Below, one piece after another: positions 59,779-61,188 of a DNA stretch of 64,000 nt. A model generated the notes under the pieces. The model was not told the origin of the DNA and searched no databases. It saw nothing but the letters and a program-made list of their open reading frames with translations. Location of the stretch: contig NZ_CP008941.1 in the NCBI RefSeq assembly GCF_000742835.1, forward strand, positions 1 to 64,000. The letters run 5' to 3'. The number at the start of each line of letters is the position of its first letter. Position 1 is the stretch's first letter. A program made the translations under genes and the position numbers. Source of the stretch: Candidatus Paracaedibacter acanthamoebae. Lineage in GTDB: Bacteria; Pseudomonadota; Alphaproteobacteria; Paracaedibacterales; Paracaedibacteraceae.

Positions 59779-61188
59779 ATGAAAAAATCACAGATCAAGA
59801 TTTCTGCATCTCACTTATCGAAAGCAGTATTAATTGCCGCCTCTTTGTCATGTTTCGGGTTTTCTGGTGCGCTTAGTGCGGCTGAACACACTGCCATTCA
59901 GAAACCGACTATAACAATTGCAGAAGCACTTCATGAGAATCTAAGACAGCAAGCCTTAACTACTAGTGATTTAGAATACAAGAAAATTCAAATAACAACT
60001 TTTAAAAAGGATGATGCAGATGAGTGGATCATTAATGAAAGATCTAAGCATAACATAGGGCACCAACAAAATTTGATCAAAGCATCCTTAAAAAAAAGAG
60101 GAGAGAGGTTTTCTCAGATAAATGTTGCTCAAGCAGCAGCACGGACGCTGTCTAAAGATTTTCTCCCTCTCATAGCTGACCTTGCCTATATTTCTTTTAA
60201 TCATATTTTTTCTTTTGCACAGAAAGGAAATATATCGCTAGATAGTTTAATATGTGCGGAAGAAACATGGCTATTAAAGGCGCTCATTGATTATGGGATG
60301 GTATCACAGGCGTATGTATTCCTCTCTTCCGCTAAGGCTGCAGACCATGATGCTATAATTTTAAATAAGACTGTGGTTTTGACAGATTCTTTAACTAATG
60401 AAAAAAAAGTTGTAGAGGATGCTCGGGATCTCGCAAAAGAAACCTTTGCAAAAGAGAAAGTAGGGCTGGAAGAAGAGAGGCAACTTAGTCTAAAGGATAA
60501 AGAAGAAGCAAAAGGGGAGGACTTAAAACAATCCCACCAAAGAGTCATTGATAAGAAAGAGAAAGAATTAAAGCAGGTTGTATTAAAGGAAAATAAGTTA
60601 GAGTTAGATACGAAGGCTGCGTTAGAAATATTAGATAAAAAGTTTAAGGCAGATATTGATAAGCTAAAGAGTGCAAAAGAAGCGGATTTAAAAAAACTTC
60701 AAACTGGATATGACTCATTGTTTAGCGACTTTGGCTTTAAATGGGGAGGATCATGGACAAGGGGAGCACGTGAAAACATCAAAGAAATTTTTTATTTTGA
60801 TGAATTACTTTCAACGCAGTATACGGATTTCTATTCTAAAGCAAGGGCCGATATGTTGAAATCCATATTCTCTTTAGTACAGTATGAAGATACCTCGGCT
60901 GTTGAGCTAAGATGTTTAACCCTCAAGGCTCTGCTTGGTTTAGATGACTCAACTTATGATAGTGTTTTGCAAAGTTTAATTGACCAAGAAAAGCAAAACA
61001 GAAAAGAGTTAGTGACGAAAGAAGCCACTTTTGCTGAAACCCTAACCATTGCTATCAACGAGGTTGTTTCGCCAACGCCATCCCATCCTGGCGGGGAGGA
61101 GGAGAAAACCCCAACGGCAGAACAATCTAAAATTGCAATGGAGGTTGTCTCGGGGTTTGACCCTTTAAAAAAAAAGAGTATGAACTAG
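59779..61188 (+). CDS. Secreted coiled-coil protein, N-terminal part split at an A9 tract
   Basis: The frame encodes 469 residues: a signal peptide (SKAVLIAASLSCFGFSGALS, then AAEH) and a helical body. A long charged coiled coil spans about 210-310 (EEERQLSLKDKEEAKGEDLK; KFKADIDKLKSAKEADLKKL). It ends abruptly (LKKKSMN) right after nine A residues at 61167-61175. With one more A the frame continues as KKKEYELEDENNEETDAS into the 61239-61931 frame, giving one 717-residue protein with a C-terminal membrane segment. No family is recognised. A host-directed or surface role is only inference. Confidence 0.75.
   Translation: MKKSQIKISASHLSKAVLIAASLSCFGFSGALSAAEHTAIQKPTITIAEALHENLRQQALTTSDLEYKKIQITTFKKDDADEWIINERSKHNIGHQQNLIKASLKKRGERFSQINVAQAAARTLSKDFLPLIADLAYISFNHIFSFAQKGNISLDSLICAEETWLLKALIDYGMVSQAYVFLSSAKAADHDAIILNKTVVLTDSLTNEKKVVEDARDLAKETFAKEKVGLEEERQLSLKDKEEAKGEDLKQSHQRVIDKKEKELKQVVLKENKLELDTKAALEILDKKFKADIDKLKSAKEADLKKLQTGYDSLFSDFGFKWGGSWTRGARENIKEIFYFDELLSTQYTDFYSKARADMLKSIFSLVQYEDTSAVELRCLTLKALLGLDDSTYDSVLQSLIDQEKQNRKELVTKEATFAETLTIAINEVVSPTPSHPGGEEEKTPTAEQSKIAMEVVSGFDPLKKKSMN

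What the first reader, a model, noticed from the sequence alone, without database searches (positions are those of the whole stretch)
61167..61175. A9 tract separates two halves of one secreted, membrane-anchored protein
Adding one A joins 465 residues to 251 more in a single 717-residue protein with signal peptide and C-terminal membrane segment. A9 tracts are known sites of RNA polymerase slippage in AT-rich endosymbionts, so both short (secreted) and long (anchored) forms could be made. Error or real decay are the alternatives.
Basis: partly seen in the sequence, partly recalled or inferred. Interest (0 to 1): 0.55.

Follow-up and report, generated by a model that had tools for sequence, protein, structure and literature searches.

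The report
Conserved paired slippery poly-A switches
A secreted protein of an amoeba symbiont is coded in pieces that meet at two runs of A, and the same two runs recur in each of the six related genomes found to carry the gene, which suggests that slippage there, rather than decay or a reading error, lets one gene make soluble and membrane-anchored forms.

Summary
A second tract, A10 at 61689-61698, lies between linker and C-terminal membrane segment. Homologues occur in 5 of 5 genus genomes (Odyssella, Paracaedibacteraceae) and in 1 of 2 sister-genus genomes; in all, 6 of 42 genomes of the order. All six carry A8-A10 at both places although heads within the genus are 21-68% identical to the window's. 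In 5 of 5 genus members exactly one tract throws the membrane segment out of frame (tract 1 in two, tract 2 in three). After tract 2 the registers are alike in 6 of 6: immediate TAA, membrane tail, or short, mostly basic tail; a Shine-Dalgarno-like element precedes it in 6 of 6. The out-of-frame tail is still constrained (dN/dS 0.48 and 0.24 in two pairs). Runs of A10 or longer number 16 in five genomes; 7 are in this gene. Decay and simple error explain this poorly. Best reading: conserved slippage recoding, mainly by RNA polymerase, at two serial sites. Switching of tract length in DNA (phase variation) is a serious rival and ribosomal shifting at tract 2 a lesser one; no reads or isolates were available.

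The parts
59779..61188 (+). Head ORF of gene A as coded (469 aa): signal-like N-terminus, all-alpha head with a long helical hairpin, short end KKKSMN after tract 1
   Evidence: model of pLDDT 68.1 with four sequences
61167..61175 (+). Tract 1, A9, at the border of head and linker; two of three registers stop within 4 codons, the third enters the linker
61176..61688 (+). Linker of 171 codons in the other frame, low complexity
61683..61688 (+). Shine-Dalgarno-like AAGGAG directly before tract 2; a like element 4-11 bases upstream in 6 of 6 homologues
61689..61698 (+). Tract 2, A10, between linker and tail, in frame with the tail here
61699..61701 (+). TAA that ends one register at once after tract 2; present in 6 of 6
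61697..61759 (+). Short Lys/Arg-rich tail (20 codons and stop) in the third register after tract 2
61699..61931 (+). Tail in the frame of the linker, ending in the membrane segment
61866..61928 (+). C-terminal hydrophobic segment
   Evidence: hydropathy
61982..63034 (+). Gene B (350 aa, signal-like N-terminus, no known family), next to gene A on the same strand in 5 of 5 genus members and near it in G005

Best explanation
Gene A encodes an exported, coiled-coil protein whose C-terminus is chosen at two serial slippery A tracts. At tract 1 one register enters the linker and the other two stop within 0-6 codons, which gives a head-only form. At tract 2 one register stops at once, one adds a short tail (basic in five of six homologues) and one adds a longer tail that ends in a membrane helix. 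RNA polymerase slips on A8-A10 and makes transcripts of mixed tract length, so one gene yields a mixture of soluble and anchored forms; the tract lengths coded in each species set the default form. A ribosomal contribution at tract 2, helped by the Shine-Dalgarno-like element, is possible. Shown here: the anatomy, its recurrence, and constraint on the out-of-frame tail. Inferred: that the polymerase does most of the slipping, that the mixture is used, and where the forms go.
For: A tracts at the same two places in 6 of 6 homologues. In 5 of 5 genus members exactly one tract breaks the path to the tail; if each tract had a free phase this has chance (4/9)^5 = 0.017 (my arithmetic). Same register order after tract 2 in 6 of 6, and ATA for the Ile after the lysines in 6 of 6 although ATA is 10-16% of Ile codons (product 2.8e-6). 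Other registers after tract 1 stop within 0-6 codons in 6 of 6. 7 of the 16 runs of A10 or longer in five genomes are in this gene; the other 9 break no ORF that I could see. Codon choice alone gives runs as long as observed with products 1e-4 (tract 1) and 8e-4 (tract 2). Tail dN/dS 0.48 (G000-G002) and 0.24 (G001-G004), though in G001, G002 and G004 the tail is out of frame with what precedes it. Both directions of shift are needed in different species, which polymerase slippage can give: an A11 tract in C. rodentium gives transcripts with 10-15 A (PMC4256274, passages).
Against: No transcript, read or peptide was seen. In E. [quoted passage not shown] in G001, G002 and G004 the anchor needs one A fewer or two more, so it may be a minor form. 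In G005 head, linker and tail lie in one frame, so no slip is needed at either tract; its signal-peptide ORF is in another frame. The basic tail is only suggestive (P 0.008, 0.013, 0.36, 0.14, 0.07, 0.03, chosen after seeing it). The genomes are related, so the products overstate significance. G000 has at least 2 of 33 other A9 runs at a frame break in other genes, so its own A9 could be error or drift. The conserved Shine-Dalgarno-like element before tract 2 points to the ribosome as well.
Confidence: 0.55

Rival explanations
1. Phase variation: DNA polymerase slips at the tracts, so tract length differs between cells of one population and switches the anchor on and off heritably.
For: Secreted or surface protein; homopolymers in the ORF; lengths differ between species (A8-A10, A9-A10); V. 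cholerae manA has two A9 tracts that serve this (PMC3441752, passages); 1 of 6 homologues has the tail in frame with head and linker, near the one third expected for free phase.
Against: Does not by itself explain fixed use of all three registers after tract 2, ATA in 6 of 6 or the Shine-Dalgarno-like element; three species share A10/A10. MutS and MutL domains are present in 6 of 6 genomes, which lowers DNA slippage but does not exclude it (and the MutS frame in G005 is only 277 codons long).
Confidence: 0.2
2. Ribosomal frameshifting at the A tracts, above all at tract 2.
For: A Shine-Dalgarno-like tetramer within 15 bases upstream of tract 2 in 6 of 6, against 6-20% of A5+ runs in long ORFs (product 2.7e-6; against synonymous shuffles 1.3e-4). 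Tract 1 of G000 holds A AAA AAG in frame, the motif of E. coli dnaX (motif recalled).
Against: At tract 1 such an element is within 15 bases in 1 of 6. No stable stem downstream of either tract (z -1.3 to 1.9, mononucleotide shuffles). The shift needed is towards frame 2 at tract 1 in G000 and G003 and towards frame 1 at tract 2 in G001, G002 and G004, which one ribosomal signal would not give.
Confidence: 0.12
3. Sequencing or assembly error at homopolymers; the gene is one frame in nature.
For: The probable source paper used 454, Illumina and PacBio in combination for five genomes (PMC4198247, passages); O. thessalonicensis was assembled with Newbler (PMC3177885, passage); at least 2 of 33 other A9 runs in G000 sit at a break.
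Against: Breaks in 5 of 5 genus genomes at one of the same two tracts. 13 of 33 other A9 runs of G000 lie in an unbroken ORF on the A strand, and 0 of 9 other A10+ runs in the genus break an ORF that I could see. The same tracts, registers and upstream element recur whatever the exact length.
Confidence: 0.07
4. Gene decay: the break marks a pseudogene.
For: G000 has another gene that looks so: a DUF6119 gene (L045), open over 827 codons in G002 and without any run of A7 or longer there.
Against: Head dN/dS 0.19 and 0.16, tail 0.48 and 0.24 (linker weaker, 0.49 and 0.84); tracts kept in 6 of 6; no stop in the linker in 5 of 5 (the linker being the open frame between the tracts).
Confidence: 0.04

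Closest known systems
tssM1 of Citrobacter rodentium (A11, transcriptional slippage; PMC4256274, abstract and passages)
   Same: Poly-A tract shortly before a stop; slippage adds a C-terminal domain; both forms needed
   Different: One tract, two forms, extension is a periplasmic domain and not an anchor; slippery sites are not common in tssM genes
dnaX of Thermus thermophilus (A9, tau/gamma; PMC5009743 and PMC1088944, passages)
   Same: A tract with nearby stops in both other registers gives long and short forms, as at tract 1
   Different: Cytoplasmic; default is the long form; one tract
spa13, spa33, mxiA, mxiE of Shigella (PMC5009743, PMC6925163, passages)
   Same: Tracts of about nine A in genes of an envelope machine, short or long products by slippage
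   Different: One tract each in the passages read; not an anchor choice
manA and wbeL of Vibrio cholerae O1 (two A9 tracts and one A8; PMC3441752, passages)
   Same: manA has two A9 tracts in one gene, each able to truncate the protein
   Different: In frame by default; change is in DNA; truncation only, no alternative tails in the passages read
Frameshifted genes of Buchnera and Blochmannia (PMC5009743, passage)
   Same: Endosymbiont poly-A tracts whose slippage gives 12-50% of transcripts with a corrected frame
   Different: Very AT-rich reduced genomes; rescue of decaying genes and not a site kept across genera

Membership tests
Programmed transcriptional slippage genes | A or T run of about 8-9 or more at the frame change | tested here: met
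   A8-A10 at tract 1 and A9-A10 at tract 2 in 6 of 6
Programmed transcriptional slippage genes | Site conserved across species | tested here: met
   Same two places in five species of one genus and one of a sister genus
Programmed transcriptional slippage genes | Frame change conserved and out-of-frame part under selection | tested here: met
   Break in 5 of 5 genus members, none at the tracts in G005; tail dN/dS 0.48 and 0.24
Programmed transcriptional slippage genes | Transcripts of mixed tract length, and more than one protein product | not testable with these tools
   No reads or proteomics
Phase-variable genes (slipped-strand mispairing) | Tract length differs between cells or isolates of one species, reversibly | not testable with these tools
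   One genome per species; lengths differ between species
Phase-variable genes (slipped-strand mispairing) | Simple repeat in the ORF of a surface or secreted protein | tested here: met
   export inferred from the N-terminus
Programmed ribosomal frameshifting | Slippery site with upstream Shine-Dalgarno-like stimulator | tested here: inconclusive
   Element before tract 2 in 6 of 6, before tract 1 in 1 of 6
Programmed ribosomal frameshifting | Downstream structure | tested here: not met
   z -1.3 to 1.9 at 12 sites, 70 bases each, mononucleotide shuffles; pseudoknots not tested
Programmed ribosomal frameshifting | Same direction of shift in homologues | tested here: not met
   Frame 0 to 2 in two, 0 to 1 in three
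Pseudogenes | Loss of constraint | tested here: not met
   dN/dS below 1 in head, linker and tail of two pairs

The most novel reading that the evidence does not exclude
A family-wide, two-step recoding selector: two serial A tracts at the module borders of one exported protein, the second set between a Shine-Dalgarno-like element and a TAA, with all three registers after it put to use (stop, basic tail, membrane anchor), so that polymerase (and perhaps ribosome) slippage sets a graded mix of soluble and anchored forms in intracellular symbionts of protists.
Probability: 0.4. Interest if true: 0.72.

Novelty: new variant of a known kind. Interest (0 to 1): 0.58.

Why it matters
The bacterial slippage genes in the passages I read use one tract and two products. 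A pair of tracts kept in two genera of a symbiont family, with coding kept in more than one register, would show that slippage can be an evolved selector of where a protein goes, and would mean that reading such genes as truncated or broken is wrong. It is testable in amoeba symbionts: Odyssella thessalonicensis was isolated from Acanthamoeba (PMC3177885, passage).

Tried and rejected
Pfam and NCBIfam gave nothing above cut-off for head, tail or gene B; PDB by sequence gave nothing better than E 0.76 for the head profile and nothing for gene B. Single-sequence structure of the head was poor (pLDDT 43.2), with four sequences 68.1; Foldseek against PDB had 0 matches at E 0.001 or better, the best a weak helical match at 0.044, so no function is drawn from it. 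Plasmids by protein: no match. First scan of genome contigs with one sequence: no relative; with the alignment: three named relatives.

That breaks at poly-A might be a general trait of this genome was tested on 33 of its 35 exact A9 runs (the two in the window apart): at least 2 of 33 sit at a break (L040, a lipase_3 gene, and L045, a DUF6119 gene), 13 of 33 lie in an ORF of 80 codons or more that spans them on the A strand; the rest are on the other strand, near gene ends or between genes. L045 has an unbroken relative without a tract; L040 has partial relatives only. Hence the case rests on the relatives and not on G000 alone. An earlier view of mine, that nothing upstream suggests ribosomal shifting, fell on recheck; I raised that rival and lowered the main reading from 0.6 to 0.55 for this reason.

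Full report
Observation. The A9 tract is at 61167-61175. Upstream, an ORF starts at 59779 and ends at 61188 (469 aa); downstream, another frame is open to 61931. The genome has 2,485,110 bases in two contigs. By size, contigs and kinship to Odyssella thessalonicensis it is very likely 'Candidatus Odyssella (Paracaedibacter) acanthamoebae' (table in PMC11909080, passage; inferred, not shown).

Relatives. Among 58 genomes the head occurs in 5, which are all 5 genomes held of the genus. The C-terminal part is found by sequence in 2 of 58, the window's own genome and G002, since linker and tail diverge fast. A profile of the five heads, searched over the 42 genomes of the order that were examined, finds 6; the sixth is G005, one of two genomes of the sister genus (E 6.4e-9), the other being G006, 88% complete, without a match. 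G005 is probably Paracaedibacter symbiosus by size and contig count (inferred). A tree of six heads joins G000 with G002 and G001 with G004 (100/100 and 100/99); the rest is unresolved and G005 is a long branch.

Anatomy. Each of the six genes has an A tract at the end of the head and another before the tail: G000 A9 and A10, G002 A10 and A10, G003 A8 and A9, G004 A10 and A10, G001 A10 and A10, G005 A9 and A9. The path to the tail is broken at tract 1 in G000 and G003 (frame 0 to 2) and at tract 2 in G001, G002 and G004 (frame 0 to 1). In G005 head, linker and tail share one frame, but the signal-peptide ORF lies in another and meets the rest at an A6; whether that is error or a further site is open. 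The tails end in a hydrophobic segment (best 17-aa mean 1.55-2.26, 1-5 residues from the end, six of six).

Registers. After tract 1 one register is open for 111-255 codons and the other two stop within 0-6 codons in 6 of 6. After tract 2, in the same order in 6 of 6, one register stops at once (TAA), one leads to the tail (77-117 codons) and one to a short tail of 5-21 codons. The short tail is rich in Lys and Arg in G000, G002, G001, G004 and G005, and only NNGRK in G003. Against codon shuffles that keep the anchor-frame protein, its net basic charge has P 0.008 (G000), 0.013 (G002), 0.36 (G003), 0.14 (G004), 0.07 (G001), 0.03 (G005): suggestive, and the measure was chosen after seeing the tails. 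The Ile codon after the lysines in the anchor frame is ATA in 6 of 6, though ATA makes up 10-16% of Ile codons (product 2.8e-6). A Shine-Dalgarno-like tetramer lies within 15 bases upstream of tract 2 in 6 of 6 and of tract 1 in 1 of 6; among A5+ runs in long ORFs the share is 6-20% (product over six 2.7e-6), and under synonymous shuffles of the local codons the product is 1.3e-4 (alignment). These products treat related genomes as independent and the last one was looked for late, so they overstate the case.

Rarity and selection. In five genus genomes (about 11.2 Mb by the rounded sizes) there are 16 runs of A10 or longer on either strand; 7 are tracts of this gene: 1 in G000 and 2 each in G001, G002 and G004. 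Of the other 9, two are in frame inside genes (L017, L026), three near gene starts (L015, L018, L027), one on the opposite strand of an unbroken ORF (L014), three between genes or just before one (L016, L025, L028). Exact A9 runs number 35, 18, 43, 14, 10 and 47 in G000 to G005. Given the residues at the tracts, codon usage alone gives runs as long as seen with product 1e-4 (tract 1) and 8e-4 (tract 2) over six genomes. dN/dS in the pairs G000-G002 and G001-G004 is 0.19 and 0.16 for the head, 0.49 and 0.84 for the linker, 0.48 and 0.24 for the tail; pS is 0.47-0.72, so values are rough. The tail is thus translated in these lineages, or was until lately.

Mechanism. Tracts of this length are slippery for RNA polymerase. 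In C. rodentium tssM an A11 tract yields transcripts with 10-15 A, 20-25% frameshifting, and both protein forms are required (PMC4256274, abstract and passages). Selection against long A and T runs in coding regions is evident at nine bases in many genomes (PMC1088944, passages). Against this, a transcriptome survey of E. coli and Buchnera found insertions to prevail in homopolymers and no case of a restored frame (PMC5574713, passages); the anchored form in G001, G002 and G004 may therefore be the minor one. Change of tract length in DNA is the main rival: V. cholerae manA shows that two A9 tracts in one gene can serve it (PMC3441752, passages). MutS and MutL domains are found in 6 of 6 genomes, which lowers but does not exclude it. 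Ribosomal shifting gained weight from the element before tract 2, but the two directions of shift, the lack of a stable downstream stem (z -1.3 to 1.9) and the bare tract 1 speak against it as the only mechanism. By the table of PMC3711429 (passages) a programmed shift asks for five or more genes and a conserved site; both are met, narrowly, in two genera.

Function. The head is modelled as all-alpha with a long helical hairpin (residues 155-320) and has no known family. Gene B, next to it in 5 of 5 genus members and, with two genes between, in G005, begins with a signal-like stretch and has no known family either (its G005 counterpart is judged by place and 21% identity). A role at the envelope or towards the host is inference only.

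Literature. Seven listings of open-licence PMC papers showed no report on this gene in the titles and abstracts listed (8 to 20 of up to 1,722 papers each); subscription papers and most full texts were not seen. Of the papers cited I saw passages only (abstract too for PMC4256274).

Noticed in passing
L040 (G000:C1:643116-646126), A9 at 1502-1510: A lipase_3 gene (PF01764) lies in two frames that meet at an A9; relatives in four other genomes match in part.
   Followed up: partly
L045 (G000:C1:922430-925440): A DUF6119 gene is broken at an A9 in G000; the G002 relative (L076) is open over 827 codons and has no such tract.
   Followed up: yes
window 61941-61962: An inverted repeat between gene A and gene B; stem-like sequence at the same place in G002 and G001.
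   Followed up: partly
L034:1474-1479 (G005): Signal-peptide ORF and the rest of the homologue lie in different frames that meet at A AAA AAG.
   Followed up: no
G005:C50:907223-907783: The MutS domain of G005 lies in an open frame of only 277 codons, against 893-980 in the five others.
   Followed up: no
window 4756-4764: Another A9, inside a 594-codon ORF (3416-5200) without a break.
   Followed up: no
window 20569-28041: An ORF of 2490 codons, not examined.
   Followed up: no
L015 (G004:C1 near 54421): An A12 run close to the start of a 454-codon open frame.
   Followed up: no
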